Below, piece after piece: positions 31,675 to 63,318 of a stretch of DNA of 64,000 nt. The stretch is from Methylotenera sp. L2L1 (GTDB lineage Bacteria; Pseudomonadota; Gammaproteobacteria; Burkholderiales; Methylophilaceae). The stretch spans positions 1 to 64,000 of the forward strand of contig NZ_JQMG01000001.1 of the NCBI RefSeq assembly GCF_000744605.1, read 5' to 3'. The notes beneath the pieces were generated by a model, which saw only the letters and a program-made list of their open reading frames with translations, was not told the DNA's origin and made no database searches. Each line of letters opens with the position of its first letter. Position 1 is the stretch's first letter. A program made the translations under genes and the position numbers.

Positions 31675-31693
31675 ATCGGGATTTATTCCCGAT
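31675..31693. promoter_or_regulatory. GGGA-N5-TCCC palindrome upstream of the YVTN gene
   Basis: ATCGGGATTTATTCCCGAT has 7-bp perfect arms and an A/T spacer. It lies 110 bp before the start of the YVTN gene, with a half site (CTCCCGAA) at 31662-31670. Without a T-tract it does not look like a terminator of the SoxYZ-like gene. It is the longest copy of the motif shared by the methanol dehydrogenase genes. Confidence 0.65.
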
Positions 31694-31710
31694 CAAGACT
31701 TTAAGTTAGC

Positions 31711-32529
31711 TTAAGGTTTTAAGTTAATCGTATGGATAAATACGCGGCGCTCATTATCTGATAATTTTATGTGCACATTATTCACACTGGTTTGATGATG
31801 TGTTTTTGGCAAATCAAACTTAAAAGCTAAATGTGGGTTCTCAGCGGTACCCACGTTAAAATCAATCTGCATGATGCTATATTTCTCAAATATGATGTCT
31901 GCATGCTCTATATAAAACGCTGGTTTTAATTGCTGAGTTTTGGCATCTAATTGCAAGCCTGTGTACATGGGATGTTTGATTTGTAAGGTAGCAGCGGCTG
32001 TTTCATGCATTTTGTATGGCGGATTTATTTGGAATTTAACTTTCCCTGCGTTTTCCCTGACGATACTTTCATCTTCAGCAATAGTGCCAGCACAACCACC
32101 ACCTGCATTCACTGTAGCCGTTGCCATGAGAAGCGCACCGCTCTCAGTTTCTGCAATAGCACGAATATGCGAATCATTCTCCATGCGTATTCTGGTACTG
32201 AGTTCTAATGCATTAAAACTAAGGGGAAATTGATAATGCGCGACCATTGGCACTGGGTTGGCATCTACGAATAAATAAATACTTTTGATGGGGTCTTGCA
32301 GTTGGTTACTGACCTTAAGCGTCACTGGCACTTGTGCAGAATTTTCAGCGCCTAATGGCGCAATCACTTGTATTAGAGGGGTGGGGTTAATTGGCCGATG
32401 ATTAAAAAATCGTTCTTTAATCATCGGCCAGTTTTGAACTGACAACTCTGCATGGACAGCACTAGGCAACAACACAAGCCAACATAGCACTCCTGTGCAA
32501 ATTAGCGCTTTGATATATTTGACTACCAT
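31711..32529 (-). CDS. SoxYZ-like carrier associated with quinoprotein dehydrogenases
   Basis: It has a signal peptide (about 1-27), a SoxY-like immunoglobulin domain ending in GGGCAG with Cys146 (the SoxY carrier motif is GGCGG/GGCAG at the C-terminus), then a SoxZ-like domain (about 165-272). Fusions of this kind are known beside PQQ-dependent alcohol dehydrogenases. In SoxYZ the Cys carries covalently bound intermediates; what the dehydrogenase-associated form carries is unknown. It sits in the xox cluster downstream of two MxaD-like genes. The 272-aa length fits a full Y-Z fusion. Confidence 0.85.
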   Translation of the reverse strand: MVVKYIKALICTGVLCWLVLLPSAVHAELSVQNWPMIKERFFNHRPINPTPLIQVIAPLGAENSAQVPVTLKVSNQLQDPIKSIYLFVDANPVPMVAHYQFPLSFNALELSTRIRMENDSHIRAIAETESGALLMATATVNAGGGCAGTIAEDESIVRENAGKVKFQINPPYKMHETAAATLQIKHPMYTGLQLDAKTQQLKPAFYIEHADIIFEKYSIMQIDFNVGTAENPHLAFKFDLPKTHHQTSVNNVHIKLSDNERRVFIHTINLKP

Positions 32530-32584
32530 TTTAATCAGCCATGTCGGTTGATAGTACTTGATATTTAAAATTAGCTTTCTACAC

Positions 32585-33130
32585 CTAATTTTCTAGCGAT
32601 TTTTTCAGACCGACCATGGCAGCATCATAAAGCTCGTTAATTGCTTTATTTGCTGTTGGATTATCTAATCCTGGCGGCGCTTCCATGCTGTTGGCTTTGT
32701 TGTAAAAACGTGCAGTAATGGTCAGCAATGATTCTTGTGGGGTTGCACCAGCTTTTACTTGCATCACAGTGCGATAATTACTTACTGGTATCGTACTTTC
32801 TTTTACTTCTAGCATTTTGTAATCAACCTTCATGCCGGCATCATTCGCCTCACGCAATTTTTCTACAAAACCGTTGCCGTTTTTTAGCACCACTTCACGA
32901 TGCAACAATTCAGCACCTGTTTCAACGTCTGGTCTTGTATCAGTTTTAACGCTAACAACGTCAGGATGCCATTTTCCAATTGCACCAAAGTCTTTGACTA
33001 AAGCCCATACCTTTGCCGGCTCTGCTTTTATGACAATCTCTTTCACTACTTTTTGCGGGCTTGGTCCATGCGCAAAAGCGCTGATTGGCATTAAGCACAA
33101 ACCTGCAAATAACAACAAAAACTTTTTCAT
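32585..33130 (-). CDS. MxaD-like periplasmic SRPBCC protein (xox cluster copy 1)
   Basis: It has a signal peptide (about 1-20), then a START/SRPBCC-fold domain with the family segment KVVKEIVIKAEPAKVWALVKDFGAIGKWHPDV. MxaD has been implicated in the interaction between methanol dehydrogenase and cytochrome cL. This copy is 181 aa and lies 40 bp after a paralogue (33170-33706); a third copy is the true mxaD at 53134-53643. It probably serves the XoxF system. Confidence 0.85.
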   Translation of the reverse strand: MKKFLLLFAGLCLMPISAFAHGPSPQKVVKEIVIKAEPAKVWALVKDFGAIGKWHPDVVSVKTDTRPDVETGAELLHREVVLKNGNGFVEKLREANDAGMKVDYKMLEVKESTIPVSNYRTVMQVKAGATPQESLLTITARFYNKANSMEAPPGLDNPTANKAINELYDAAMVGLKKSLEN

Positions 33131-33169
33131 TTATATATCCTTAACTAATCTACAACACTCAGTGAGTGA

Positions 33170-33706
33170 CTACTGAGCCTCAACTACTTTTTTTAGGTTT
33201 TGCAAGCCAGAGTCATAAACACCTTCGATGGCTTTTACTGCTGTCGCGTTATCTTCACCCGCTGGCGCATCCACTTTGTTAGCTTTATTATAAAAACGAC
33301 CTGTCCATGTGACGGTTGCTTCATCAGCATTAGGGCCAGCTTTTACTTGCATAATTGCACGATAACCACTGACAGGCAGTACACCTTCTACAATGCGGTA
33401 TTCAACTTTCATCGTGCTATCTGTCACCCCAATTAATTTTTCTAGCAATGTGCCGCCGCCATTTAAGGTGAGTAATCGATGTTGTGCATCTGCACCAGCT
33501 TCATCTTTACGTGTCTCTAGCTTGGTTTCTGCAACGGCTGGATGCCATTGATGGATAGCGCCAAAATCTTTTACTAAATTCCAGACTTCTTCTGGGCTGG
33601 CTTTAATCACTACTTCACGAATCACTTTTTGCTGACTTGGCGCATTGGCAGCATTAGCTGTTAATGGAATAGTACAGATTGCTAATAAAGCTAATAAATA
33701 TTTCAT
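33170..33706 (-). CDS. MxaD-like periplasmic SRPBCC protein (xox cluster copy 2)
   Basis: This exported protein of 178 aa has a signal peptide (about 1-20) and the same SRPBCC domain as its neighbour, including KASPEEVWNLVKDFGAIHQWHPAV and a C-terminal LKKVVEAQ helix. The tandem arrangement with 32585-33130 suggests local duplication followed by clear divergence. It follows the DUF1924 cytochrome gene by about 80 bp in the same direction. Confidence 0.85.
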   Translation of the reverse strand: MKYLLALLAICTIPLTANAANAPSQQKVIREVVIKASPEEVWNLVKDFGAIHQWHPAVAETKLETRKDEAGADAQHRLLTLNGGGTLLEKLIGVTDSTMKVEYRIVEGVLPVSGYRAIMQVKAGPNADEATVTWTGRFYNKANKVDAPAGEDNATAVKAIEGVYDSGLQNLKKVVEAQ

Positions 33707-35845: not shown

Positions 35846-35929
35846 ATACTACCTTTCAAAAAATAATCTACTTCAAAATGTTCTGGCGGCTAACATGCCA
35901 TTTAACGATGAATATGTAATTTTCATTTA

Positions 35930-35965
35930 CGGACTAAATCCTAATAAGCACTGGGATTTAATCCT
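35930..35965. promoter_or_regulatory. Two near-matches of the GGGA-N5-TCCC motif upstream of xoxG
   Basis: GGGATTTAATCCT at 35953-35965 and CGGACTAAATCCT at 35930-35942 each differ from GGGA-N5-TCCC by one or two bases. They lie about 85-120 bp upstream of the xoxG start, 11 bp apart. Confidence 0.5.
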
Positions 35966-35985: not shown

Positions 35986-37611
35986 TTAAATTGAGCCCTC
36001 TAACTGCACGATGGCTTTATCAGCACCGTTTTCTTTAGCAAGCATGAGCGCGGTTTTTCCATGGTCATCTTTAAGGTTAGGATTAGCCCCTGCTTTTAAT
36101 AGCAACGACACAATCATCTCGTGATTTGAAAATGCCGCAATCATCAGAGGTGTTAATCCGCCTGTATTTTTAGCATTTGGGTTAGCTTTATATTGCAACA
36201 AGGTTTGCGCCATTTGCTGATTGCCTTTTTTAACTGCTAGCATCAATGCATTGTACTTAGCCGCCCCCATTGCAAAATCAGGTTTTGCACCATTGTCTAG
36301 CATGGCCACTGCTGCATTGGCTTTGTTATCCATGACCGCCATTGCTAATGCAGTCATCTCATCACTATTCACTAAGTTATAGTTGGCTTTATATTGACCC
36401 ATTAAGCGAAATATTTTTGGCTCGTTTGAACGCACAGCATGCATACCAGCGGTCCAATTATCGTGATCCTGTGCATTTGGATCTGCGCCATAAGCGAGTA
36501 AACCACTGATTAAACTAATATCCTCGCTCGCTATGGCTACCATTAAAGGGGTTTTACCTTCATTATCTCTAGCATTAACTTTTGCACCAAGCTTTAATAA
36601 ATACTCAACCCTAGTTGCATCGCGTGCAATCGTAGCGTTATGAAGCTCTTGATCTAAGCTAGAACCCTGCTTTAACGCTTCATCTACTAGTGATGGCAAC
36701 GTTGAAATGTCAGAACTTTTAGGAACATAAGCTTTTCTTACCAATGCCTGATATGGGCCATGTGATGGAATATCACCTGAAATCACACATTCATTACACA
36801 GGACTAATGGAACACCGTACTCATCAAATATCTGCCTGATTTTATCTTTCTCTTTGATCATGACTGATTCAATTTGTGTTTTTAATTCTTTAGCATTTTT
36901 ACGCATACCAATCGCCAGTGGGAACTCCATAGGTGTCTTATCTTCCAGGCGATTAAGCGGTAGAATTGTGATTGGCTCTTTTTTAATGGTTTTGTACCAA
37001 CCAGCCATTGGGCCCCATATCGCAGCCACATCAAATTTACCATCGAGCATCAACTGCACATCCATATGGGGCTGTCTTTCTGGCCTTAAGTCAGCATCGT
37101 GTGCAATGGTGCGTACAATCGTATTTGCTCGATTAATGCCATGCTCCTGCAACACGGTGCGAATTGCAGAGTGCTGGAATACGCCTACTTTGTAATCATT
37201 TAATAACTTAGGATCTGATAGGTCTTGAATATCTATTCCTTTATCGCTTCTGTACGCCAGTACAAAGGTACTTTTATAAAGTGGTTTAGTGGTTAACATA
37301 CGCTCATCGTCTGGCGTCATATCCATCAAAATATCGCACTCGTTGTTATCAAAAGTTTGACGGGTTAGGCCTCGGTTTAAGTAAGGTCGATAAAAATAAG
37401 TGACACTTTTCCCCATGCCTTCTGCAATCACTTTCGCTATTTTGTTAGAAAAGCCTTCGCCCCTATCATTGGATATTGGCATGTTACCTGGGTCTGCGCA
37501 CACCCTTAGAATACTGTCATTGTTAGCTAATACTGTAGAACTTGAGGCCATGCCAAGGGTTAACAACGTAATCATTGGGATGACTTTCTTAGGCGCGAAA
37601 TGCTTTAACAT
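35986..37611 (-). CDS. xoxJ: XoxJ/MxaJ-like binding protein fused to ankyrin repeats
   Basis: After a signal peptide (about 1-29), residues 30-265 are a periplasmic binding-protein domain of the quinoprotein-dehydrogenase-associated type: LRVCADPGNMPISNDRGEGF, then GVFQHSAIRTVLQEHG. MxaJ and XoxJ are thought to help activate the dehydrogenase. Residues about 300-541 form about seven ankyrin repeats (LLKLGAKVNARDNEGKTPLM, LLKAGANPNLKDDHGKTALM). The fusion doubles the usual 270-300 aa length. It follows xoxF after a strong terminator, so it probably depends on read-through or its own promoter. The separate mxaJ at 60274 lacks the ankyrin part. Confidence 0.87.
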   Translation of the reverse strand: MLKHFAPKKVIPMITLLTLGMASSSTVLANNDSILRVCADPGNMPISNDRGEGFSNKIAKVIAEGMGKSVTYFYRPYLNRGLTRQTFDNNECDILMDMTPDDERMLTTKPLYKSTFVLAYRSDKGIDIQDLSDPKLLNDYKVGVFQHSAIRTVLQEHGINRANTIVRTIAHDADLRPERQPHMDVQLMLDGKFDVAAIWGPMAGWYKTIKKEPITILPLNRLEDKTPMEFPLAIGMRKNAKELKTQIESVMIKEKDKIRQIFDEYGVPLVLCNECVISGDIPSHGPYQALVRKAYVPKSSDISTLPSLVDEALKQGSSLDQELHNATIARDATRVEYLLKLGAKVNARDNEGKTPLMVAIASEDISLISGLLAYGADPNAQDHDNWTAGMHAVRSNEPKIFRLMGQYKANYNLVNSDEMTALAMAVMDNKANAAVAMLDNGAKPDFAMGAAKYNALMLAVKKGNQQMAQTLLQYKANPNAKNTGGLTPLMIAAFSNHEMIVSLLLKAGANPNLKDDHGKTALMLAKENGADKAIVQLEGSI

Positions 37612-37859: not shown

Positions 37860-39764
37860 TTAGTCAATACGGAAAGTGAACAATGTGCCGCCTTGAGGAA
37901 CCTTATCAAGACCAGTTGCTTTAGCCATCGCTGTCGCACCAATTGCACCGTATTTGTCATCCATATCTAGTCCTGCAGTGACAGGTAGACCAATCCAGCC
38001 ACCGATACCTGTCCATACAGACACGTATTGTTTGCCTTTTACTTTGTATGTGATTGGGTTACCGATAATGCCTGATGCCAATTTACGTTGCCATAACACT
38101 TTGCCTGATTTACGATCAACCGCACGGAAATCACCGCCCAATGAACCGTAGAATGCCAAGCCACCATCAGTCACTAACACACCACTCCAGTTTGGATATG
38201 GGTCTGATACTTCCCAGATTGTTTTACCAGTCACTACGTCGAATTTTTTCAACTTACCAGTCACACCTGGTTTTTCTGGGTACATATACACGTTAGCAAA
38301 TACATAAACGGTACCTTGTTGTGTATGTGTACGTTCTTGTGGTTCATCTTCCATACACCAGTTATTAGTTGGCACATAGAACACGTTTGGTTCTTTTGGA
38401 TCAACCGCCGCTGGTTGCTGATCTTTACCACCCATTGCAGATGGACAAGCTTGCGTGTTTACATCACGGTCAAATGGTGAGTGCTCTTTAACTTTAACAG
38501 GGCGACCTGATTTCAAGTCAACCTTTTCAGCCCAGTTTACAGTCACAAATTTGTTTGCTCGCAACAATGTACCGTCTTTACGATCTAACACATAAGCAAA
38601 ACCATTACGGTCAAAGTTAACTAAAGCATCATGTTTTTTACCGTCAACCACTAAGTTGTCGACCAAGATGTTTTCGTTTACACCGTCATAATCCCATTGG
38701 TCAAATGGTGTTTTTTGGTATGCCCAAACCATTTCACCAGTGTCAACTTTACGCGCCATAATAGTCATAGACCATTTATTGTCGTATTTACCTACATTGG
38801 TTTTTGGATCAGGTGTGTTACATTTTTCATGCGTTAAGTTTGCACCTGTTTCACCGCAACGGTAAGCTGGAGACCAGTGACCTGGATTACCTGTACCTGC
38901 GTACATAATGCGTAATTTTGGGTCATAGCTGAACCATGCCCAAGGTGCACCGCCACCAATTTTCCACTCATCGCCTGGGTAAGTTAAACCAGTGTTTTGG
39001 CCATATAAACCATAATGTGGATTAGCTTTGTTGGTTTCTGGTGTCAAACAAAGGTCTTTATCTGAACCAGTGCTATGACATTTCCACACTTCTTTACCTG
39101 TTTTTAAATCATAAGCTACGGTACGGCCGCGTGCAGCAAACTCATCACCACCAAAACCGGCAATCACTAAACCTTCAGCCACCATTGCAGGGCCTGAATG
39201 TGTTTCACCTTTGTCTGGGAAAGCATGCTTAGTGACCCAAATTTCCTTACCTGTAGCTGCATCAAGTGCAATCAAGAAGCCATCCAATGTATGGAAAACA
39301 ACTTTACCATCTGCGTAATTCAAGCCACGGTTAATCGTATCGCAACATGCACGTGGCACGGCTGATTCATCACGATCTGTTTTTTTGGTGTAGTTCCAAA
39401 TTTGTTTCGGATGATCAGGGTCAGATAAATCTAGCGCTTGCACAATATTTGGCCAACCTGAAACCATATACATCATGGTTTTACCATTATGCTCCACCAC
39501 CACTGGCTGACCTTCATGGCCGCGTAATGTACCCGAAGACTGTGACCAGATCATTTGTAGATCTTTTACGTTTTTAGTATTGATATCTTTTAGCTGGCTA
39601 TGACGATGCAAAGCCAAGTTTTGACCCGGTGCTGCCCACATATTATGATCTTTACTGCGCTTGATGATTTCCTCATTCGCAGACGCCTGACCTACCATCC
39701 CTATAAATGCCAAAGCACCTAGAGCTAGTAAACCTGAGCGTAATGTAAAGTTTGGTTGTTTCAT
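37860..39764 (-). CDS. xoxF: XoxF-type, lanthanide-dependent PQQ methanol dehydrogenase
   Basis: This periplasmic PQQ dehydrogenase has eight tryptophan-docking blades and signal peptide 1-29. Key residues seen are the vicinal Cys140-Cys141 disulfide, Glu208 (GGDEF), Asn293 (TGNPG), catalytic Asp358 and, two residues on, Asp360 in QWDYDG. The second Asp is the extra lanthanide ligand that separates XoxF from calcium-dependent MxaF, which has Ala there. It oxidises methanol, possibly to formate, passing electrons to XoxG. The length of 634 aa is slightly long, with an insertion around 303-325. The exact XoxF clade cannot be assigned here. A GGGA-N5-TCCC palindrome lies about 140 bp upstream. 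Confidence 0.95.
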   Translation of the reverse strand: MKQPNFTLRSGLLALGALAFIGMVGQASANEEIIKRSKDHNMWAAPGQNLALHRHSQLKDINTKNVKDLQMIWSQSSGTLRGHEGQPVVVEHNGKTMMYMVSGWPNIVQALDLSDPDHPKQIWNYTKKTDRDESAVPRACCDTINRGLNYADGKVVFHTLDGFLIALDAATGKEIWVTKHAFPDKGETHSGPAMVAEGLVIAGFGGDEFAARGRTVAYDLKTGKEVWKCHSTGSDKDLCLTPETNKANPHYGLYGQNTGLTYPGDEWKIGGGAPWAWFSYDPKLRIMYAGTGNPGHWSPAYRCGETGANLTHEKCNTPDPKTNVGKYDNKWSMTIMARKVDTGEMVWAYQKTPFDQWDYDGVNENILVDNLVVDGKKHDALVNFDRNGFAYVLDRKDGTLLRANKFVTVNWAEKVDLKSGRPVKVKEHSPFDRDVNTQACPSAMGGKDQQPAAVDPKEPNVFYVPTNNWCMEDEPQERTHTQQGTVYVFANVYMYPEKPGVTGKLKKFDVVTGKTIWEVSDPYPNWSGVLVTDGGLAFYGSLGGDFRAVDRKSGKVLWQRKLASGIIGNPITYKVKGKQYVSVWTGIGGWIGLPVTAGLDMDDKYGAIGATAMAKATGLDKVPQGGTLFTFRID

Positions 39765-39895
39765 ACATCCCCCATTGATTCGGTTATTAGGAACTACTGC
39801 ATATCCAACGTGTTACATCTAGTTACAAGTTGATTACGTGTTAGCACTATAGGCAAAGATGCGTTGCACTACATGAGAAGAGTTCCTGTGTATGG

Positions 39896-39912
39896 TCGGG
39901 ATAAAATCCCGC
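39896..39912. promoter_or_regulatory. GGGA-N5-TCCC palindrome upstream of xoxF
   Basis: CGGGATAAAATCCCG is a perfect inverted repeat with an A/T centre, about 135-145 bp upstream of the xoxF start. A half site (CCGGGATA) follows at 39918. Closer to the gene, GTTACA is directly repeated at 39812-39827. Confidence 0.65.
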
Positions 39913-39937
39913 ATGGGCCGGGATAGTAAAATAAAAA

Positions 39938-40930: not shown

Positions 40931-41575
40931 CTAAGTCTCGATGACACCATGCCGCATTGCTAATCTGACCAACTCCACCGGACTGGATATTCCAAGTTTT
41001 TGCTTTAATAAAGTTTGGTAGTTAGCCACTGTTTTCTGGCTAATTTTGAGTGTTAGCGCAATATCCTCAACATTACTGCCTTCTGCCAGCATGCGGAAAA
41101 CTTCAAACTCTCTGGCAGATAAGCGCTGTGTCGGGTCTTCGCCACCGGACATCGACTGTAATACGATATTTTGTGCAACGGATGGACTTAAATAGCCTCT
41201 GCCTGCAAAAGCCTCTTTAACGGCGCGAACCAAGTCATCAGCCGCACCAGACTTTGCAACATAGCAACGCGCACCAGCAGATAGTGCCTGTGATGCAAAC
41301 GCAGCATTCTCATGCATAGAAAAAATAACGACACGTGCCGATGGGTAACGTGTCAGAATTCTTCTTAAAGACTCTAAGCCTCCCATCCCGGGCATCGACA
41401 TGTCCATAACTAAAACATCAGGCAAGTGCTCGCCATACAACTGATATGCCTGCTCACCACTATCGGCCTCTGCAACCACTTGCATCCCTGTGTTTTGCTC
41501 TAACAAACGTCTCAAACCAGATCGCACGACGGCATGGTCATCAACAAGCACAATACGAATACCAACACTCATCAA
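40931..41575 (-). CDS. MoxX/MxaX-like NarL-family response regulator
   Basis: The receiver domain (about 6-120) has Asp12-Asp13, phospho-acceptor Asp58 (VMDMSMPGMGG), Ser85 (VIFSMHE) and Lys107. The LuxR-type helix-turn-helix (about 148-208) contains LSAREFEVFRMLAEG and ISQKTVANYQTLLKQKL. The start overlaps the kinase gene stop by 4 bp, so the pair is translationally coupled. The pairing with a MoxY-type kinase and the location between xoxF and a TonB receptor point to control of methanol oxidation genes. The GGGA-N5-TCCC palindrome may be its binding site; that is inference. Confidence 0.88.
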   Translation of the reverse strand: MMSVGIRIVLVDDHAVVRSGLRRLLEQNTGMQVVAEADSGEQAYQLYGEHLPDVLVMDMSMPGMGGLESLRRILTRYPSARVVIFSMHENAAFASQALSAGARCYVAKSGAADDLVRAVKEAFAGRGYLSPSVAQNIVLQSMSGGEDPTQRLSAREFEVFRMLAEGSNVEDIALTLKISQKTVANYQTLLKQKLGISSPVELVRLAMRHGVIET

Positions 41576-42924
41576 ATTACTTTCTTTTTAAATGGCAGGT
41601 TTGCTTGAATTTGCACACCAAAACCAATACGGCTGTTAAGTTCGAAATGACCGCCTAACCCTTGTACGCGCTCTCGCATACCTGCAACACCAAAGCCTGA
41701 TGAAACTAATTTAGGATCAAATCCTTTACCATTATCTTCAACACTTAAAACCAGCTCATCTGATTGCCGATGAAGACTAACAACCACTTTGTTCGCTTCT
41801 GAGTGTCGTGCAATATTCGTTAAACACTCTTGCACAATGCGATATATTGCAATTGCTACAGTTTCATCCACACCGACAAAATCACCTAACAGCGAGACAT
41901 CTACAGAGATACTACGGTTTCTTTGCAACCAAGTATCAATTAAATCTTGCAGGGCAGCCTTGAGCCCAAGCTCATCCAGACTACCCGGTCTTAAGCGTTG
42001 CAACATACCGTGTACGATATTCATCATTTGCCTTGCGACAACATCAATAGCTTTTGCACTTTCACGTGCGTCATTGATAGTTTTGGCATGTAAAATCGTT
42101 GAGGCATCAATATGAATTGCAGTTAAATGCTGGCCGACTTCATCGTGCAAATCCCGAGCTAGACTTTTCCTTTCATCCTCTTGCAGGCTAATCATTTGCT
42201 GGGTTAATTGATGGTTACTTTTAATGCTATTTTGTAGGGTTTCTGCCATTGCGTTAAATTTGCTGCTAATACCTGTCAATTCAGGCAACGTAAAACTTGG
42301 CAAACGTGAATCTAAGTTACCTTGCTCTAATTCTGACAATGCCACCAGCACACGATTAACTGGTCGAAGTGCTCGACCAACTGCCCAATAGATCATCGCG
42401 TTTACTACGACAAAAAAGATGGATACCAGCACTAATATGCCTAGTATGTCATTCCAAATTTCAGCAATCTCATAGGATGAGTCAGGCGTGACTACTAACT
42501 CTCCTAATATTCGTCCATTGGCAAATATTTGCCGTTTAATAGGGGGCATCGTTTCAGAAACTGCATCCATTGCACTCACAAACCATACAGGAGCAGGCCA
42601 CTCATCTACTTTAGCAACAGAGCGATTACTATCTCTAAGGTTTCCTCTGGCATCAAAAAAGTCAATGCGCAAATGACGTACATTTTCCAGGCTCTGCAAT
42701 CTAAATATTGAAGCTTTATTAGGATTTATTCCGTTTAACCATACATAGTCGGAGGTGTAATGCAGAATCTCAGCATCCAATAAATGTAAAGCCAGTAGCG
42801 CTGTAGATTCTACTTCCGCACGTACATCATCCCGTGCGCTTCGAATCATCAACAATGCACCAATCAACATTACCAATAAAAGCAATGTTGTAATGATTAA
42901 ATTGAGTCGGAGTTTAAGATTCAT
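41572..42924 (-). CDS. MoxY/MxaY-like sensor histidine kinase
   Basis: Order of domains: membrane helix (about 8-28), periplasmic LapD_MoxY_N domain (about 30-155), second helix (about 160-183), HAMP (about 183-235), HisKA_3 dimerisation domain with phospho-acceptor His260 (RDLHDEVGQHLTAI), and HATPase domain (VEDNGKGFD, GVAGMRERVQGLGG). Kinases of this family regulate methanol dehydrogenase genes in other methylotrophs. The 450 aa is full length. The upstream 528 bp contain a hairpin with a T-tract and GGGA-N5-TCCC motifs. The sensed signal is unknown. Confidence 0.9.
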   Translation of the reverse strand: MNLKLRLNLIITTLLLLVMLIGALLMIRSARDDVRAEVESTALLALHLLDAEILHYTSDYVWLNGINPNKASIFRLQSLENVRHLRIDFFDARGNLRDSNRSVAKVDEWPAPVWFVSAMDAVSETMPPIKRQIFANGRILGELVVTPDSSYEIAEIWNDILGILVLVSIFFVVVNAMIYWAVGRALRPVNRVLVALSELEQGNLDSRLPSFTLPELTGISSKFNAMAETLQNSIKSNHQLTQQMISLQEDERKSLARDLHDEVGQHLTAIHIDASTILHAKTINDARESAKAIDVVARQMMNIVHGMLQRLRPGSLDELGLKAALQDLIDTWLQRNRSISVDVSLLGDFVGVDETVAIAIYRIVQECLTNIARHSEANKVVVSLHRQSDELVLSVEDNGKGFDPKLVSSGFGVAGMRERVQGLGGHFELNSRIGFGVQIQANLPFKKKVI

Positions 42925-43010
42925 GAGGGAGGACGATTAAGTTACCACTGCATTTTAATGAGTTTTTCAAAAACGGATACAGGAGAAATTCCCGACCTAG
43001 GGGAAAAAAT

Positions 43011-43034
43011 GCCATGCAGTGTTAACTGCATGGC
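43011..43034 (-). terminator. Hairpin with T-tract in the moxY leader (attenuator candidate)
   Basis: GCCATGCAGT and ACTGCATGGC form a perfect 10-bp stem with a 4-nt loop. On the minus strand it is followed by ATTTTTT. It lies 87 bp upstream of the moxY-like start, downstream of the palindromes at 43101-43144, so a transcript starting there would meet it before the gene. Confidence 0.6.
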
Positions 43035-43131
43035 TAAGAGAGGTACTTATCTAGCTAATTTGGAGATTAACTGGTTGCCAGTTTAGCAATAACAAAATCA
43101 ACTCCCTAGGGAGTTATACCACTTTAAACTT

Positions 43132-43144
43132 GGGATTTTATCCC
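43132..43144. promoter_or_regulatory. GGGA-N5-TCCC palindrome between moxY and the TonB receptor
   Basis: GGGATTTTATCCC is a perfect match to the shared motif. It lies about 210 bp before the kinase start and 310 bp before the receptor start. The receptor has a closer, one-mismatch copy (GGGATTTTTTCCT, 43354-43366). Confidence 0.62.
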
Positions 43145-43452
43145 TTTGTAATCAATACATTCATAAATTATTAATAAAGCTAACTAGAGTATGAAGTTAT
43201 ACAAGCCTATCTCTAAAAAGATAAAAATAAAGATAAATGCTAATTATCGAAAATCGGTCACTCAGTATATGGATCATCATATGATACTTAATGATACTTA
43301 TGTATTTAACAGCTTATTGCCATTCTTCTTAAAAAATACATTCTGTAAATATAGGGATTTTTTCCTATATGCCAACGTGAATTAACTCACGGCTTTGGAT
43401 GACTTTTTAACGGGATAATTGAACCTCTCATGTAAATCCGAGGTTTATCATT

Positions 43453-45663
43453 ATGATGTTTAAGAAGAAAGTTTTAGCTTCCCTAATTCCGCTGGTATTT
43501 ATACAACCAGTTTACGCAGATGAAAATAAAGAAGCGATTAAGTTAGATAAAGTGGAAGTCACAGGCATTTTGCCTGAAAAATTAGAGTCAGTACCAGGCT
43601 CTTTCGATATTGTTAGCGAAAAAGAGTTAGAGGCTAGCCGCCCTTTCTCCATTAAAGAAGCATTAGGTAACGTACCTGGTGTGAATGTTGTACAAAATGA
43701 AGATCCATTAGGTTTAGCACAAAACATTGGCATCCGCGGTATGGATCCACGCCGCACTTCACGCACACTTTTACTTGAAGATGGTATGCCGTTATTCTTA
43801 GCGCCTTATGGCGACCCTTCTTCGCACTATATCCCCATGCTTGAACGGGTTGGTCGTATTGAGGTGGTTAAAGGCTCAGGCCAAGTATTGTATGGCCCAC
43901 AAACAGTAGGTGGCATGATTAACTTTGTTAGCAAGCCAGTACCCAAAGATGGTTTTGCAGGTAGCGTATCTGCTGTGGGGGGCAATAACGATTTTTATGG
44001 CTTACATGCCAATGTTGGTTATGGTACTGACCTAGGTGGATTCATGGTCGACGCCATTAAAAAAGAAGGCGATGGTATTCGTGAGAATCACGAGTTTGAT
44101 GTAGAAGAATACACGTTAAAGGGTCAATTAAACATCACAGACCGTCAAACACTGATTGCTAAAGTTGGTTACTACAAAGAAGACTCAAATGTATCTGAAA
44201 CTGGCCTAGGTGAAGTAGACTACATCAACGATAAGTTTCAAGCACCGTCTGGCAAGAATGACTTTTTTGAGCATGAACGTAAATCTGCACAGTTACAGCA
44301 TATTTTCCAAATTGATGACAAAATGAAGTTATCGACCCAAGCGTACTATGCTGATTCGTATCGAACATCATTCCGCCAGACGGATGCACCTGGTGGTTAC
44401 GATGAAGCAAATAATGCGACTGGCATCACGGTGTTGGAACGATGTGACACACCAGGCGTGCCATTTACTGAAGATCAGGCGAATGCATGTGGTGGCCGCC
44501 ATCGCCCAAGAAGTTATAACTATTGGGGTATTGAACCTCGTTTAGACGTAAGCCATAATTTGTTTGGCATAGACAGTGATGCAGTACTTGGCTTCCGTTA
44601 TCATGAAGAAGATATCAGCCGTCAACAATACCGTGGGGATACTGCAGACTTTCAAAGCCTATCTTATGCCAAAGCCAACTCATTGGCTCGTGAAGATATA
44701 GGTATCAAAGTTGAAGCTAAATCTTACTATGCGCAAAACACGTTTCACGTAAACGACTGGGCAATCACACCTGGTGTGCGAGTTGAGGATATCCAAATTA
44801 AAACGGATATTCGTCGTGCAGGCAATGCGGTCCAAAATAATCCTGAATCAAACTCAACCAATAACCAAACGGAAGTATTGCCAGGTTTTGGTGTAGCTTG
44901 GAATGGCATTGCCAACACCACAGTCTTTGGTGGTGTGCATAAAGGCTTTGCACCACCGAGGCCAGATAGAGATTTGCGTGTAGCTGGTGCGAACACAGCT
45001 GTCGTAGATAAAACCAAACCTGAAACCAGTACCAATTGGGAAGTCGGCGTACGCTCAAACTATTTTAAAGGCGTTAATTTCTCATCAACCCTATTTCATA
45101 CTAAATTTGATGATATCGTCATCAATAATGGTGCGGGTAACTTTGTGAATGGTGGTGAATCAGCCATGTCTGGCTTAGAAGTTGGTGGCCGTATCGACTT
45201 TGGTACTATTTACAATACAACGCATAACATTTATGTGTTGGGCTCGTACACCAATACGTTCACAGCAGAATTCAAGAAAGATGGTCAGGTGGCAAGTAGC
45301 GGTATCCAAAGTGGCTCACGTTTGCCCTATGCACCTCGTCATTTAGCTTCTGTGAGCTTAGGTTATCAACATCCGGTTGGTCTGGATGCGCGTGTTGGTG
45401 TGACATACATCAGCCAGCAGGAAGTTGACGCGTTTGCTAGAGCACTTGGTCCTGTTGATGCAGCGCTTTCTGGACTCGCTGGCAACATTCCTGCATACAC
45501 ATTACTTAATGCATCTGTGAACTTTAAACCGGTAGGCTCTAAAGTGACGTACTTCGCTAGTGGCCATAACTTAGCAGACCGTGAATACTTAGCAAGCCGT
45601 GTAGATGGTATGTCTGTAGGCCGTGGCCGTCAGGTGTTTGGTGGGATTCGTTACGACTTCTAA
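43453..45663 (+). CDS. TonB-dependent outer-membrane receptor (FecA-like)
   Basis: This 736-aa receptor has a signal peptide (about 1-22), a TonB-box-like segment (DKVEVTG, 32-38), a plug domain (about 48-160, with GIRGMDPRRTSRTLLLEDG and RIEVVKGSGQVLYGPQTVGG) and a 22-strand barrel ending in the usual aromatic residue (YDF). It lacks an N-terminal STN signalling domain. It looks most like siderophore or ferric-dicitrate receptors. Because it lies between moxXY and a second mxa-like cluster and has the shared palindrome upstream, uptake of a chelated metal needed by methanol dehydrogenase is a reasonable inference, but iron or another ligand is equally possible from sequence alone. Confidence 0.92.
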   Translation: MMFKKKVLASLIPLVFIQPVYADENKEAIKLDKVEVTGILPEKLESVPGSFDIVSEKELEASRPFSIKEALGNVPGVNVVQNEDPLGLAQNIGIRGMDPRRTSRTLLLEDGMPLFLAPYGDPSSHYIPMLERVGRIEVVKGSGQVLYGPQTVGGMINFVSKPVPKDGFAGSVSAVGGNNDFYGLHANVGYGTDLGGFMVDAIKKEGDGIRENHEFDVEEYTLKGQLNITDRQTLIAKVGYYKEDSNVSETGLGEVDYINDKFQAPSGKNDFFEHERKSAQLQHIFQIDDKMKLSTQAYYADSYRTSFRQTDAPGGYDEANNATGITVLERCDTPGVPFTEDQANACGGRHRPRSYNYWGIEPRLDVSHNLFGIDSDAVLGFRYHEEDISRQQYRGDTADFQSLSYAKANSLAREDIGIKVEAKSYYAQNTFHVNDWAITPGVRVEDIQIKTDIRRAGNAVQNNPESNSTNNQTEVLPGFGVAWNGIANTTVFGGVHKGFAPPRPDRDLRVAGANTAVVDKTKPETSTNWEVGVRSNYFKGVNFSSTLFHTKFDDIVINNGAGNFVNGGESAMSGLEVGGRIDFGTIYNTTHNIYVLGSYTNTFTAEFKKDGQVASSGIQSGSRLPYAPRHLASVSLGYQHPVGLDARVGVTYISQQEVDAFARALGPVDAALSGLAGNIPAYTLLNASVNFKPVGSKVTYFASGHNLADREYLASRVDGMSVGRGRQVFGGIRYDF

Positions 45664-49258: not shown

Positions 49259-50119
49259 TTAGCCCATAAATTGTTCAAAATACTCAGACATAGCCTCAGG
49301 ATTAAAAGCCTCACTTAGGTAAATTGGCTGGTAATCAAAGCTTGCAAATATGTTTTCCAGTTGCTCTTTACGTTCCATAAAGGCCGCTTCAAACTGTTTT
49401 CTCACAGAGTCTCTAAAGAAAATACTACGGCACATCCCAGTTTCAGGATCTAGCATGTTGCCAAATCCAAACTTAGGCAGTTTTTTATATTCCTGATCAT
49501 CCCAAAGCACTACTGGGACAACTTGGTGAACCGACATCGCATTAAGCGCCTGCTCAAGCAACTCTATAGGCATATGAAAATCAGAAATCCAAAAGACCAA
49601 CCCGCGATGTTGACTAAGGTATTGTGGCACGGCGAGTATGCCATCAGCGCCTATATGCATTTTTTTATAATTTTTCAACTGATCGATCAATTCAAAAGAT
49701 TGATAGACGTGATGACTTAAAGGCAAGGTGAGGTCTTCAAGCACTTCATGGTTGTATCCTATGAAGCTAAATACATCTCCAGCATTAAAAGCTGAATAGG
49801 CTACAGATGCAGCTACTTCCATCGCCAAATCAAGCTTACGCACATGTCCTTTAAACTGCATTGAACTAGAGCAGTCACATACAGCAAAAATCGGCGTCGT
49901 ATTATCCTGATTGAAAAGCTTAACTTGTATTTGCTCATAAGGGTCACGCAGCGTCTGCCGCAAATCCATGCGTCTAGCATCAGGATGATCAATCAGTGAA
50001 ACATTACCCCTATACTCAAACCCTAGTCCGCGCTGTGAGCCTCGGTGGTCTCCAGCATGAATGCTGCTGGATTTCCATGGAATTTGATAAGAAAAAGGTT
50101 TGGCGTATGCTGGAATCAT
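49259..50119 (-). CDS. MxaS-like DUF58/VWA protein, second cluster
   Basis: This soluble, cytoplasmic VWA/DUF58-type protein of 286 aa carries Asp82-Ser84-Ser86 (DCSSS) at exactly the same residue numbers as in MxaS (57160-58023). Other shared motifs are RGN..L.D.P..RR.DLR near the N-terminus and the ISDFHM segment. It overlaps the MoxR-like ATPase gene by 4 bp. MoxR ATPases and VWA proteins commonly act together in cofactor or metal insertion. Confidence 0.87.
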   Translation of the reverse strand: MIPAYAKPFSYQIPWKSSSIHAGDHRGSQRGLGFEYRGNVSLIDHPDARRMDLRQTLRDPYEQIQVKLFNQDNTTPIFAVCDCSSSMQFKGHVRKLDLAMEVAASVAYSAFNAGDVFSFIGYNHEVLEDLTLPLSHHVYQSFELIDQLKNYKKMHIGADGILAVPQYLSQHRGLVFWISDFHMPIELLEQALNAMSVHQVVPVVLWDDQEYKKLPKFGFGNMLDPETGMCRSIFFRDSVRKQFEAAFMERKEQLENIFASFDYQPIYLSEAFNPEAMSEYFEQFMG

Positions 50120-51159
50120 GCTGCTTTAGCCTGTGCTGGCACCGCCACAGTGCTTAATATCTGCGTTGTAAACTCACGCGCTAACTGCGTTCTTCGATTT
50201 TCATACATAGAGTTAAACACCAACCTATGTGCAATCAACTCATGGAACACAGCATGGATATCTTCAGGATATAAACTATCGCGATTCATCAGCCAAGCAT
50301 TGACACGTGCTGCCTTAAGTAACATACCCATGCCTCTAGGGCTTGCACCTGTATGTACTAAACGATTGACATCAACGCTATCCATTTTGATGCCGTATTT
50401 AGCTGGTGATTGTGTTGATTCCCATAAATCGATTGCGTAATCCTCTAAGGTTGGACTTGATTTAATATGACTTTGCAGGATGTCTGAAAAATTATTAAGC
50501 TGATCAAACTGCAGTACATTAGACGCTACTTGCTTAGTCAGATTTTCCGCATGCTGGAACTTCACGTTAAACATGAGTGATTTTCTTAATTCACGATCTT
50601 CAGGAATCTCAATCGGAATTTCCATCATAAAACGGTCACGTGCTGCAGATGGAATTTCAAAGGTTTCATTTTTCTCTACTTGATTACGGTCTGCAAACAC
50701 CACCATGTGCGGCAAACGGTACTCTTTCTTAAACGCACTGATGTGTCGTTCAGCCATGACGCGCAACATAAGCGCATGTACTTGAGGCCTAGCCCGGTTT
50801 ATTTCATTAAAGAAAAAAACAGATAGGTTCTCACCTGCGCGTAACAAAGGACCTTCATCAATTTTAGGTCTTCCGTCTTCGCCTAAATAGGTGTGATAGA
50901 TTAAGTCATTAGGCATCAAATCTACAGTGCCTTCAATACGCTCATAAGCACCGCCAATACATCGTGCAATAGACTGCAATAATGTCGTCTTCCCTACACC
51001 AACCCCACCCTCCAGTAACACATGACCACGCGCAAAAATAGCAATATTCATTAACCTAATGGCTTTATCTTGGCCTACGATAACTTTTTTAACTTCATTT
51101 TCCAGCTTTAAAGCATGATTACGCCAGTCTGATAATTGATGATCTAGTGGTGGTGACAT
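50116..51159 (-). CDS. MxaR/MoxR-like AAA+ ATPase, second cluster
   Basis: This MoxR-family AAA+ chaperone has Walker A GGVGVGKTT, Walker B VFFFNEINRARPQ, and the family motifs PHMVVFADRNQVE and ASPRGMGMLL. The start is moved to the ATG at 51159, which has AAGGAA with 6-nt spacing; the frame extends 39 bp further without support. It is the first gene of the second RSACKL set and is divergent from a MocR regulator across about 280 bp containing inverted repeats. It probably drives a metal-insertion machine for a quinoprotein. Confidence 0.9.
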   Translation of the reverse strand: MSPPLDHQLSDWRNHALKLENEVKKVIVGQDKAIRLMNIAIFARGHVLLEGGVGVGKTTLLQSIARCIGGAYERIEGTVDLMPNDLIYHTYLGEDGRPKIDEGPLLRAGENLSVFFFNEINRARPQVHALMLRVMAERHISAFKKEYRLPHMVVFADRNQVEKNETFEIPSAARDRFMMEIPIEIPEDRELRKSLMFNVKFQHAENLTKQVASNVLQFDQLNNFSDILQSHIKSSPTLEDYAIDLWESTQSPAKYGIKMDSVDVNRLVHTGASPRGMGMLLKAARVNAWLMNRDSLYPEDIHAVFHELIAHRLVFNSMYENRRTQLAREFTTQILSTVAVPAQAKAA

Positions 51160-51440
51160 GAGTATTCCTTTGCTAACCATTGTTGTTAAAAGGTTCAATC
51201 AATAGAACCAAGCTATCTGCTACATGACTTTTAAGCCATGCTGTAACAAGTAGTGAATACAATGTAACAGAATGTAAAAGTCAATAAACCATCCAGTTTA
51301 AATAACCTAACTGGTCCAGTAAAATTTAGAGTTACAATGTGGTTTAGATCAACCAGATTTTAAAAAAGATAGGTTCAATACAACCATTTTTGGATTTTCA
51401 TCATGCGTTGTTCGCTAATTTATGTTGAAAAGGAGAGGAA
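51160..51440. promoter_or_regulatory. Divergent region between mxaR-like gene and MocR regulator with inverted repeats
   Basis: CCAGTT at 51293-51298 and AACTGG at 51309-51314 form an inverted repeat with a 10-bp spacer. The latter continues as ACTGGTCCAGT, itself palindromic (51310-51320). Upstream are direct repeats of TGTAAC (about 51242, 51264) and TGTAAA (51274). MocR regulators typically bind direct or inverted repeats in such shared promoters. AGGAGAGG precedes the MocR start. Confidence 0.5.
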
Positions 51441-60273: not shown

Positions 60274-61107
60274 TTAAATTGGCAAAAGTGGGATGCCTTC
60301 ACGCTTAAGCACTGATTCAATCTCACTACGCTTTTCATCAATAGCTTTGTTAAGCGCTTGCTGTAATTGCACATCATCCTTACGTACGCCCATCACAATT
60401 TCATAGTGCATTTGCACAGATTCACCATTAGATTTTGTTGCATCATCTTTCACCAACTGAACCTTCAATGGCTCTTTAGATTGCTTCACATAACGTGCTG
60501 CTTCTGGTGCCCACAACATGGCTGCGTGGATATATTTGTTAGATACATCATTCACAACTTCTTGCGGGTCAACCCTCACATACTTGTTACGTGTTGATTG
60601 GTATTTTTGCTTCTCTGCAAAATAATCAAACATGTCATCAAATCGATTAATTTGTAGCAACATCACCTTACCTGGGCTATCCGGCATGACACCAATGCGG
60701 AAATTTCTCTCTTTTAATAAATCATCATTCCATGAAGAAATATCAATTTCACGATCTTCCCTAGTAATAAACACGTAACCAGTTTTGTAATAAGGATTAG
60801 TCTTAAGCACACGTGGGTCTGTACTATCCACCCCTAGCACTAAATCGCATTTCTTTTTATCTAAGAAAAAACCAACGGCATAGCGTGGATCATCCCAGTA
60901 CACATAATTCAATTTCTTATTCAATGACTTAGCCATTATTTCTGCAATATCATTTTCAAAGCCATCTTTCTTATCGTTAGAAAAAGGCATCTCATTTTTA
61001 CCTGCACAAACATTCAACTCATCGGCATACACCTGCACTGCCCACAAACTTAAAACGCCAAGCACTAAAGACTTAAACCCAGAACGCAAAAACTTTTTAT
61101 TTTTCAT
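60274..61107 (-). CDS. mxaJ: MxaJ, periplasmic binding-protein-like component
   Basis: The start is set at the ATG at 61107, which gives a signal peptide at once and has GAGGAG about 10 nt upstream; the frame is open 129 bp further without support. The mature protein (about 28-277) is a solute-binding-protein fold with LNVCAGKNEMPFSNDKKDGF, as in MxaJ/XoxJ. It is required for active methanol dehydrogenase, probably in assembly. The xox-cluster homologue (35986) has an added ankyrin domain. Confidence 0.92.
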   Translation of the reverse strand: MKNKKFLRSGFKSLVLGVLSLWAVQVYADELNVCAGKNEMPFSNDKKDGFENDIAEIMAKSLNKKLNYVYWDDPRYAVGFFLDKKKCDLVLGVDSTDPRVLKTNPYYKTGYVFITREDREIDISSWNDDLLKERNFRIGVMPDSPGKVMLLQINRFDDMFDYFAEKQKYQSTRNKYVRVDPQEVVNDVSNKYIHAAMLWAPEAARYVKQSKEPLKVQLVKDDATKSNGESVQMHYEIVMGVRKDDVQLQQALNKAIDEKRSEIESVLKREGIPLLPI

Positions 61108-61281
61108 GCTAAAAATACTCCTCATGCTAAAAAATTCAGGACACATCCAAATAAACATCATGAAACATCCCAACAATGGTGATGTGTGAAACTCATTTGG
61201 ATAAGCCTTGGGGTGAAAATGCAGGCCAGGTATCAACCCACCCAGCCTGCACAGCCTTACTAGTTCAACTAAACTTTTGGT

Positions 61282-63081
61282 TTAAAGACTAAACACCATC
61301 AAACCACCGCCCATGTTGGTATGGTTTTGTAGCTCTTTGAAAGCACCTACAGCACCAAGACCAGCACTTGGGTCAGTCAAGTCAAACACCAGACCAACAC
61401 CTGGCCAACCACCTACGCCATACATACTTGCAACGTATTGTTTGCCCTTAAATGCATAAGTCATAGGAGACCCGATACCACCTGAAGGCATTTTGAATTT
61501 CCACAATTCTTTACCGTTGTTTTTATCCAATGCTTTGATATGACCATCTAAAGTGTTGTACCAAACCAAGCCACCTTTGGTGTACAAAGTACCGCCCCAA
61601 GCTGCAAATTTCTCCCATTTAGACCACTTCACTTTTCCTGATACAGTGTCAAAAGCACGTACAGTACCCATCTCTGTTTTAGTAGGGCCACTAGGTCCAG
61701 GGTACATTGCTAGCGTTGCGCCAACAAAGAACTGGCCTGCACGGTATGGCAGCATGAACGGCTCCCAATCCATACAAATATGATTCAAACCAGCGTACAA
61801 GGTACGTGATTCTGGGTCATATGAGTCGACACCTTGGTTATGGAAGCCCATCGCGGATGGACAGATATTGGTACCTTTATGATCCATACGTGTTGAGAAC
61901 TCTGGATCACGTACTGGCAAACCAGTTTTTAAATCAACTTTCTTAAACACGTTAACCGCTGGGTCAACCTTGTCAGCCAAGATTAATTTACCTGTGTCAC
62001 GATTAAGCGTGTACATAATGCCGTTACGGTCAATGTGCGTAAGAAGCGGTGTCATTTTGCCTTGAACAGGTTGATCAGTAAGCACCATTTGGTTCACACC
62101 TGCAAAGTCCCACTCATCATGTGGTGTCTTTTGGTAGCCCCACTTTGCTTCGCCCGTATCTACATCACGCGCCCAAATAGTCATCGTCCACTTATTATCA
62201 CCAGGGCGCATGGTTTCGTTCCAAGGTGCAGGATTACCTGATCCGTAATAGAACAAGTTCAATTTAGGGTCATATGCATACCAACCCCAGTTAGTACCGC
62301 CACCGATTTTCCAAGCATCACCTTCCCATGTTTTGGTACCTAAACCAAATTGACCATAGTGGGGATTATGTTCATTAAAGTTTTTAGCTAAGCGAATTTC
62401 ATTATCAGGACCAGTTGCAAATGCACGCCATTTCAATGCACCAGTTTTTATATCAACAGCATTCACCGCACCACGCACACCCAACTCAGCGCCAGAACAA
62501 CCAATTAACACGGTATCTTTCACCACATAAGGCGCTTGCGTAAACGTCATGCCAACTTTAGGATCACAAAGCTCCACTTTCCAATTGACCTTACCCGTTT
62601 TTGCATCTAAAGCTAATAAGTGGCCATCCGCTTGCTTTTTAACGATTTGACCAGCACCATAAGCCACGCCACGGTCAACAATATCGCAACACATGACTGC
62701 TTTAGTAGAAGCGTCTTGTTTTGGCTTATGAGACCAAACAATTTTGCCTGGGTCATTTAAGTTAACAGCGAACGTATTATTTGGAAATGCTGAATGGATA
62801 TACATCATGTCACCAATCACAAGTGGCGCACCTTCATGACCATGCAATACACCGGTTGAGAATGACCAAGCAGCCTTAACATTCTTTACATTGTTTTTAT
62901 TAATCTGATCTAAAGTACTATTGTGCTGGCTGTTATAACCACCAGTTTGTGTTGCCCATTGGTTTGGGTCATTCACACGTTTGGTTAAATCCTCATCTGC
63001 AAAAGCAGTTTGCGCTGCTGCAAGAACAAGTAAACCGCCGATTGCTGCACTAACACTGACGTTAGCAACTTTGCGTTTCAT
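61282..63081 (-). CDS. mxaF: MxaF, large subunit of calcium-dependent methanol dehydrogenase
   Basis: This periplasmic PQQ enzyme has signal peptide 1-28 (TAFADE). It shows the vicinal disulfide Cys131-Cys132, Ca/PQQ ligands Glu199 (GAEL) and Asn283 (SGNPAPW), and catalytic Asp325 in EWDFAG. Residue 327 is Ala, not Asp, so the extra lanthanide ligand is absent and this is the calcium form. The 599 aa is exactly the usual length. First gene of an eleven-gene operon; a GGGA-N5-TCCC palindrome lies about 185-200 bp upstream, between it and a divergent histidine kinase gene. Confidence 0.97.
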
Positions 63082-63318
63082 ATTGATCGTCTCCCTATAA
63101 ATTGGTTAAACCGTATAAATCCGAAGCCATCATGATTATCAATTTGGCGAGGTGCATTATGTGCCTTGGCTATTTTCCAAATAAGATGAAACATTCCCGA
63201 TGAAAAATGAAATTACTCATTGCAGTTACATCTTGTAACTAGTTATTTACCTCATTACACATCGTCGGGAATTATTCCCCTATTCAAGATTCTGTATTTA
63301 CAGAACAATCACTCCCTT
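63082..63318. promoter_or_regulatory. Divergent mxaF/kinase regulatory region
   Basis: CGGGAATTATTCCC at 63266-63279 is a perfect copy of the GGGA-N5-TCCC motif. A half site (TTCCCGAT) is at 63194-63201. GTTACATCTTGTAAC at 63225-63239 is another perfect palindrome (6-bp arms, TCT centre) and shares GTTACATCT with the xoxF upstream region at 39812-39820. The mxaF and kinase promoters must both lie here. Confidence 0.68.

What the first reader, a model, noticed from the sequence alone, without database searches (positions are those of the whole stretch)
31675..63279. A 13-bp operator-like palindrome, GGGA-(A/T)5-TCCC, marks the methanol oxidation genes
Perfect copies occur at 31678-31690 (YVTN gene), 39898-39910 (xoxF), 43132-43144 (moxY/TonB region) and 63267-63279 (mxaF/kinase). 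One-mismatch copies are at 35953-35965 (xoxG) and 43354-43366 (TonB receptor). The eight fixed bases should occur about once by chance in a window this size, yet all copies I found are intergenic and next to related genes, about 90-200 bp upstream of starts. A two-component regulator such as the MoxX-like protein is the obvious candidate to bind. I am not aware of a published description of this site.
Basis: partly seen in the sequence, partly recalled or inferred. Interest (0 to 1): 0.82.

Follow-up and report, generated by a model that had tools for sequence, protein, structure and literature searches.

The report
Operator of a methanol-oxidation response regulator
A short palindromic DNA sequence probably lets one bacterial response regulator switch on the genes for lanthanide-type methanol oxidation, its own operon and perhaps a small RNA; it gives the long-studied methanol dehydrogenase switch a DNA address that can be tested.

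Summary
The four perfect GGGA-W5-TCCC copies are the only four in the complete 2.64-Mb genome (reversed control 0), and orthologous promoters keep the site.

It stands before xoxF, xoxG, a beta-propeller gene, the TonB receptor and a promoter beside the kinase operon. The 63267 copy fits the divergent kinase promoter; mxaF has its own degenerate site at 63186.

Best binder: the NarL/LuxR-family regulator at 40931-41575 (RR1). Its kinase-regulator operon carries a site in 16 of 16 promoters read, and RR1 is in 14 of 14 genomes with this xoxF. Relatives with a KTxAN recognition helix have sites nearby in 43 of 52 loci, xTxGT/GH relatives in 2 of 26.

Unexpectedly, the 43132 promoter meets a conserved terminator after about 70 nt, a candidate small RNA, with possible counterparts in other genera.

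No binding, transcript or expression was measured. New member of a known kind.

The parts
39898..39910 (-). site A of the xoxF promoter (perfect copy)
   Evidence: within 1 mismatch in 13 of 14 orthologous promoters, the 14th has 2 mismatches
39875..39887 (-). site B of the xoxF promoter, AGGAACTCTTCTC
39846..39851 (-). xoxF -10 box TATAGT
   Evidence: TATAGT in 14 of 14 aligned promoters; coordinates
39919..39923 (-). extra upstream half-site TCCCG of the xoxF promoter
   Evidence: columns conserved at 85% or more; coordinates derived
31678..31690 (-). site A of the YVTN beta-propeller gene promoter (perfect copy)
31655..31667 (-). site B of the YVTN promoter
31626..31631 (-). YVTN -10 box TAAAAT
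35953..35965 (-). site A of the xoxG promoter (one mismatch)
35930..35942 (-). site B of the xoxG promoter
35900..35905 (-). xoxG -10 box TTAAAT
43354..43366 (+). site A of the TonB receptor promoter (one mismatch)
43377..43389 (+). site B of the TonB receptor promoter (weak)
43414..43419 (+). TonB receptor -10 box GATAAT
43132..43144 (-). site A of promoter P1 (perfect copy)
   Evidence: same in L107 and L108
43109..43121 (-). site B of promoter P1
43080..43085 (-). P1 -10 box TAAACT
43004..43073 (-). candidate small RNA of about 70 nt started by P1 (both ends inferred)
   Evidence: terminator; conserved in two close relatives; no Rfam match
43011..43034 (-). intrinsic-terminator stem-loop between P1 and the kinase promoter P2
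   Evidence: stem changes keep pairing in L107 and L108
   Evidence: a site is present in 16 of 16 orthologous promoters read
42952..42957 (-). P2 -10 box TAAAAT
63267..63279 (+). perfect copy; by geometry the proximal site of the divergent kinase (HK2) promoter
   Evidence: 24 bp from AACAAT
63304..63309 (+). HK2 -10 box AACAAT
63186..63198 (-). mxaF proximal site GGGAATGTTTCAT
   Evidence: the degenerate form is matched in 29 of 30 mxaF promoters, the 30th is masked
63156..63161 (-). mxaF -10 box CATAAT
40931..41575 (-). RR1, NarL/LuxR-family response regulator, best candidate binder
   Evidence: Response_reg + GerE domains; distribution
41572..42924 (-). HK1, HAMP/HisKA_3 sensor kinase of the RR1 operon
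37860..39764 (-). xoxF, nearest solved structure 7o6z
43453..45663 (+). TonB-dependent receptor
61282..63081 (-). mxaF

Best explanation
The 13-bp dyad GGGA-N5-TCCC (A/T-rich centre) is the dimer site of a NarL/LuxR-family response regulator, most likely RR1 (40931-41575), phosphorylated by its operon partner HK1. RR1 activates promoters that lack a -35 box. One dimer sits at about -42, next to RNA polymerase; in most target promoters of this cluster a second, stronger site two helical turns upstream (about -65) recruits it. Shown by sequence: the sites, their conservation, the fixed A-10-B-23/24-(-10) spacing, co-occurrence with RR1, and the site in front of the HK1-RR1 operon. Inferred: that RR1 is the binder, that the effect is activation, that the operon autoregulates, the start sites, and that the 43132 promoter makes a small RNA. 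The signal (methanol, a lanthanide, or the dehydrogenase itself) is not known.
For: Only 4 perfect copies in the genome, all here. xoxF promoters: site within 1 mismatch in 13 of 14 orthologues while the W5 centre and one outer base change. In 250,329 bases (14 stretches from 13 relatives) there are 42 sites within one mismatch, 11 of them perfect; reversed control 0. Spacing test on 41 sites, both directions, no gene information: site-B score peaks at spacing 10 (3.11 against 1.75, sd 0.21), -10 score peaks at offset 46 = 10+13+23 (2.49 against 1.83, sd 0.19). Composite model R1 finds in the own genome, at E up to 10, its five training promoters and one weak hit. 39 of 120 family genomes with mxaF or this xoxF: 134 perfect sites, 20 controls; the other 81: 64 and 42. 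HK1-RR1 promoter: a site in 16 of 16 read, six genera (17 asked, one truncated). RR1 at E 1.3e-74 or better (55% identity or more) in 76 of 120 genomes, in 14 of 14 with this xoxF and 38 of 39 with mxaF or this xoxF (counted by hand). KTxAN-helix relatives: 63 sites within one mismatch in 43 of 52 loci, 2 controls; xTxGT/GH relatives: 2 sites in 26 loci, 2 controls.
Against: No binding, start-site or expression data. Paralogue RR2 and the RR3 type share the KTxAN residues and could bind too. The two-site element was not found before YVTN in 1 of 12, xoxG in 3 of 12 and TonB in 1 of 7 orthologues, and P1 only in 3 of 9 kinase promoters. Of 30 perfect copies from other family genomes, 18 lie in an open frame of 120 codons or more and only 3 have a two-site score of 9 or more in either direction. 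A site within 1 mismatch lies in the 1500 bp upstream of mxaF in only 14 of 30. The 63267 assignment needs HK2 to start at the ATG at 63319, almost at the inferred transcript start; the longest open frame starts further upstream, at a TTG. Genome G006 has 8 perfect copies but no mxaF at E 1e-200, no close RR1 and no R1 hit. 9 of 52 KTxAN loci have no site. The helix comparison is confounded by operon context, and 11 of the 51 KTxAN loci are Bradyrhizobium.
Confidence: 0.78

Rival explanations
1. The main binder is the paralogue RR2, encoded beside mxaF at genome position 64327-64965, or RR1 and RR2 share sites and compete, one for xoxF and one for mxaF.
For: RR2 has receiver and GerE domains and the same KTxAN residues; the 63267 site lies before its kinase gene; in L119 an RR2-type regulator adjoins xoxF.
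Against: The most conserved site is before the HK1-RR1 operon. RR1 is in 14 of 14 genomes with this xoxF, three of which have no mxaF match at E 1e-200. RR2 was not searched family-wide.
Confidence: 0.25
2. The site is a repressor operator, not an activator site.
For: A palindrome alone does not tell the sign; PedR2 of Pseudomonas putida is described as activating pedE and repressing pedH (passages).
Against: Sites lie upstream of the -10, replace the -35 and keep fixed spacing to the -10, the usual place for class II activation, not over the start site.
Confidence: 0.12
3. The copies are chance or hitch-hike in conserved intergenic DNA.
For: Outside the locus one-mismatch copies are near background (25 outside; control 19 genome-wide); 18 of 30 perfect copies from other family genomes, of both kinds, lie in open frames.
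Against: Shuffles, reversed controls, base changes that keep the core, and the spacing peak.
Confidence: 0.02
4. The palindromes are hairpins or terminators acting as RNA.
For: The scan scores 43132-43144 and 42980-42994 as 5-pair terminator-like sites.
Against: In the window promoters described here the sites lie upstream of a -10 at fixed distance; the clear terminator is longer, with 10 pairs.
Confidence: 0.02

Closest known systems
MxaY/MxaB and MxaYX regulation of methanol dehydrogenase genes (Methylotuvimicrobium buryatense, Paracoccus denitrificans; PMC5018670, passages read)
   Same: Sensor kinase and response regulator next to or controlling mxaF/xoxF genes; HK2-RR2 divergent from mxaF has a layout like mxaXYZ.
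   Different: No operator sequence appeared in the 12 passages shown; MxaB is an orphan and MxaY controls its transcript level; here HK1-RR1 forms an operon by the xoxF cluster.
PedS2/PedR2 rare-earth switch of Pseudomonas putida (PMC6115532, passages read)
   Same: LuxR-type response regulator acting on PQQ alcohol dehydrogenase promoters.
   Different: 'binding motif' and 'palindrom' occur 0 times in its text; the GGGA/TCCC strings shown are in its primer table. Homology of RR1 to PedR2 was not tested.
DosR/DevR of Mycobacterium tuberculosis (PMC4082495, one passage; operator and helix letters recalled)
   Same: NarL-family regulator, GGGA/TCCC half-sites (recalled GGGACTWWAGTCCC), recognition helix with KTVxN (recalled); Lys179, Lys182 and Asn183 contact bases (passage).
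   Different: Half-sites are 6 bp apart in DosR (recalled), 5 bp here; the Lys182 position would be alanine here; no shared regulon.
MnoSR of Mycobacterium smegmatis (PMC11303327, passages read)
   Same: Two-component system for methanol metabolism with a palindromic site upstream of an alcohol dehydrogenase.
   Different: One copy in that genome; its letters were not in the passages, so the sites were not compared.
GacA with RsmY/RsmZ small RNAs (recalled)
   Same: NarL-family regulator that switches on small RNAs.
   Different: Relatives with the xTxGT/GH helix (which I call GacA-type from recall) mostly lack these sites, 2 of 26 loci; most of the RNAs proposed here carry CUCCA.

Membership tests
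NarL/FixJ (LuxR-type) response regulators | receiver domain plus GerE helix-turn-helix | tested here: met
   PF00072 and PF00196 in RR1 and RR2; solved relatives of RR1 include NarL, DevR, RcsB, VraR
NarL/FixJ (LuxR-type) response regulators | inverted-repeat dimer site bound by the protein | not testable with these tools
   site found and conserved, binding not measured
Class II activator promoter | site near -42 at fixed distance from -10, poor -35 | tested here: met
   start sites inferred, the -35 judged by eye
GacA/UvrY | reaches the curated family cut-off | tested here: not met
   best NCBIfam hit UvrY/SirA/GacA, 195.7 bits against cut-off 280
DosR-type operator | half-sites 6 bp apart (recalled) | tested here: not met
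   in 250 kb spacing 6 gives 0 perfect and 1 within one mismatch, spacing 5 gives 11 and 42; spacing 4 gives 0 and 30, which I take for the same sites read one base shifted
MxaYX/MxaB methanol switch | required for mxaF expression | not testable with these tools
   needs mutants
XoxF lanthanide methanol dehydrogenase | closest to XoxF structures | tested here: met
   7o6z 843 bits, 4mae 578, 6oc5 (named XoxF) 490; that 7o6z is an XoxF1 is recalled; the metal ligand was not checked

The most novel reading that the evidence does not exclude
One ancient kinase-regulator module, with a KTxAN recognition helix and a GGGA-N5-TCCC operator before its own kinase gene, is spread over Alpha-, Beta- and Gammaproteobacteria. 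In Methylophilaceae it also drives a hitherto undescribed small RNA beside the operon: about 65-130 nt, usually with a CUCCA stretch, ended by an intrinsic terminator. This would add an RNA arm to the methanol dehydrogenase (rare-earth) switch.
Probability: 0.5. Interest if true: 0.75.

Novelty: new member of a known kind. Interest (0 to 1): 0.62.

Why it matters
[quoted passage not shown] A defined operator, a defined promoter geometry and a named regulator make it directly testable, and would give Methylophilaceae a promoter design to build on. The site before the kinase gene in relatives without a nearby methanol dehydrogenase suggests that one regulator-operator pair was reused for different pathways. 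The candidate small RNA was not expected.

Tried and rejected
Chance: rejected. 63267 as a site of mxaF: judged less likely on geometry; a kinase -10 lies 24 bp downstream, while mxaF keeps its own degenerate site. The 43001 one-mismatch copy: overlaps the terminator T-run, not counted as an operator. Composite hit at 45831 (E 0.52): judged spurious because it overlaps the end of a minus-strand ORF. A site before pqq genes: none among the R1 hits, but pqq promoters were not fetched and R1 is poor at single-site promoters, so open. Small-RNA pairing with the mxaF ribosome site: mxaF was not among the 8 best of 26 window gene starts, and there was no control; no target is proposed. PQQ-dehydrogenase loci of 12 genomes picked: 30 loci scanned, 7 matches within 1 mismatch in 5 loci, control 0; in the 400 bp before the match start these are L244 (a Methylophilus orthologue), L249 and L272. 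For matches that start inside the gene the promoter may lie outside the stretch. Extra xoxF-like genes (13 regions): site in L128, L129 and L137 only. Pattern GGGAAWWTTTCNC in the 12 genomes: 8 of 28 loci have a kinase match, not analysed further. Rfam: nothing at the candidate RNAs (one chance match elsewhere in L142). Terminators behind sites: 6 of 10 stretches and 6 of 17 regions, so many are not RNA-like; L180 has a terminator but no CTCC before it. Model E-values come from a shortened calibration.
Full report
1. The observation. The pattern GGGA-W5-TCCC has four perfect matches in the window at the stated places and eight with one mismatch allowed, against 0.00 and 0.64 in shuffles. The complete genome has exactly those four perfect copies and no copy of the reversed control. 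With up to one mismatch it has 32 against 19 controls, 25 of them outside the locus, so away from here such copies are near background; 6 of 7 examined lie in long open frames.

2. Conservation. The xoxF here (37860-39764) has close orthologues (86-99% identity) in 13 other genomes of the 120 drawn from its family. Its promoter keeps the site within one mismatch in 13 of 14; the 14th (L116/L057) has GTGAAAAATTCCT at the same place. The centre and one outer base change between species while the core stays, and TATAGT downstream is present in 14 of 14. In 250,329 bases (14 stretches from 13 relatives) there are 42 sites within one mismatch, 11 of them perfect, against 0 reversed controls. They stand mostly before xoxF, xoxG, a YVTN beta-propeller gene, the TonB receptor and kinase genes.

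3. Anatomy. Reading the promoters side by side shows a stereotyped element: site A (13 bp), 10 bp, site B (a weaker 13-bp copy), 23 or 24 bp, a -10 box. In the window: xoxF, YVTN, xoxG, TonB and P1 (coordinates). I first saw this by eye in the window, so I tested it on all 49 sites within one mismatch of the window beyond 20 kb and the 14 stretches, 41 after dropping near-identical neighbourhoods, using both directions and no gene information. The site-B score peaks at spacing 10 (6.5 sd) and the -10 score at offset 46, which is 10+13+23 (3.4 sd). Orthologous promoters are still in this set. Misses: YVTN 1 of 12, xoxG 3 of 12, TonB 1 of 7; for TonB of the window and L108 that scan ranked another pair first, and the 43354 element was taken by hand. 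A sequence model of 30 such promoters (R1) finds in the own genome its five training members and one weak hit at E up to 10, and hits at E up to 0.05 in 70 of 120 family genomes. The element is not seen at most perfect copies of other genomes: 3 of 30 score 9 or more, and 18 of those 30 lie in open frames.

4. mxaF and its kinase. A site within one mismatch lies in the 1500 bp upstream of mxaF in 14 of 30 orthologues, control 0 of 30. A proximal degenerate site, GGGAATCTTTCAT-like, is present in 29 of 30; the 30th is masked. In the window it lies 24 bp before CATAAT. The perfect 63267 copy is 24 bp before AACAAT on the other strand, just ahead of an ATG of the kinase gene at 63319, so it fits the kinase promoter. 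The kinase start is uncertain: the longest open frame begins at a TTG upstream of the site.

5. The kinase-regulator operon. All 16 orthologous HK1 promoters that could be read, from six genera, carry a site, in most about 23-24 bp before a -10-like hexamer picked by eye (L111 fits better at 21). A site before the regulator's own operon suggests autoregulation.

6. Who binds. RR1 has receiver and GerE domains. At E 1.3e-74 or better it is in 76 of 120 family genomes, in 14 of 14 with this xoxF and 38 of 39 with mxaF or this xoxF, G071 being the exception (hand count). Family-wide, 39 genomes with mxaF (E 1e-200) or this xoxF hold 134 perfect sites and 20 controls; 81 without hold 64 and 42 (Mann-Whitney p 8.5e-15). 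Among 80 named relatives of the regulator (the best 80 kept of at least 553), 52 loci with a KTxAN recognition helix have 63 sites within one mismatch in 43 loci (2 controls), 26 loci with xTxGT/GH have 2 sites (2 controls); 2 loci fit neither class. At -1700 to -1300 from the regulator start, where a kinase gene would begin, 22 of 51 KTxAN loci and 0 of 24 xTxGT/GH loci have a site, no controls; by hand-assigned taxon 13 of 31 and 0 of 22. Caveats: related taxa, and the two classes differ in operon context. KTxAN resembles the recalled KTVKN of DosR, whose Lys179, Lys182 and Asn183 touch bases (PMC4082495, one passage). RR2 and RR3 types share KTxAN, so shared binding is possible.

7. A candidate small RNA. 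Promoter P1 (43132 copy) points at the kinase, but a 10-pair stem with a T-run lies between P1 and the kinase promoter. In two close relatives the stem changes on both sides and the 5' part is nearly unchanged. The predicted transcript is about 70 nt (43073-43004). In L166, L175, L178, L216 and L364-L366, L376 a protein-like reading frame follows instead, read by eye. Overall 6 of 10 stretches and 6 of 17 have a terminator behind the site. The nine candidates folded all hold CTCC, and CUCCA can be read in each of the six genus groups among them; that word was chosen after looking, and L180, not folded, lacks it. Rfam has no match at them. No target is claimed.

8. Known or new. The regulator class and promoter type are known. 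Ten searches of the open-access library and the passages I read of PMC5018670, PMC6115532, PMC5784242, PMC12997753, PMC11845868, PMC11303327 and PMC12628762 showed no description of this operator; no paper was read whole. Most subscription papers are not held, so an earlier description cannot be excluded.

9. Verdict. A real, conserved operator and promoter module, with confidence about 0.78 that a NarL-family regulator, chiefly RR1, activates through it. Unexplained: the 8 perfect copies in G006, which has no mxaF at E 1e-200, no close RR1 and no R1 hit.

Noticed in passing
43004-43073, minus strand: Terminator-ended stretch after promoter P1, a candidate small RNA conserved in two close relatives, with look-alikes beside RR1 in other genera.
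   Followed up: partly
35986-37611: A MoxJ-like binding-protein domain seems fused to ankyrin-type repeats (matches to Ank-named families).
   Followed up: no
G006 (L152, L163): Eight perfect copies of the site in a same-genus genome without an mxaF match or a close RR1; only two were looked at: one between open frames, one at the start of one.
   Followed up: partly
L147, L149, L153, L155, L159: The site lies about 1.1-1.3 kb from a DUF58 gene (query 49259-50119), perhaps with a MoxR-type ATPase gene between, in other genera; no copy within one mismatch lies before the window's MoxR-type gene 50116-51198.
   Followed up: partly
L361-L363 (g13, 1.3-Mb genomes): Streamlined relatives keep an RR1 relative (56-57%), a two-site promoter and a terminator right behind it although they have no mxaF or window-type xoxF match.
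   Followed up: partly
32585-33130 and 33170-33706: Two tandem Polyketide_cyc2-like proteins inside the xox cluster, about 50% identical to each other's orthologues.
   Followed up: no
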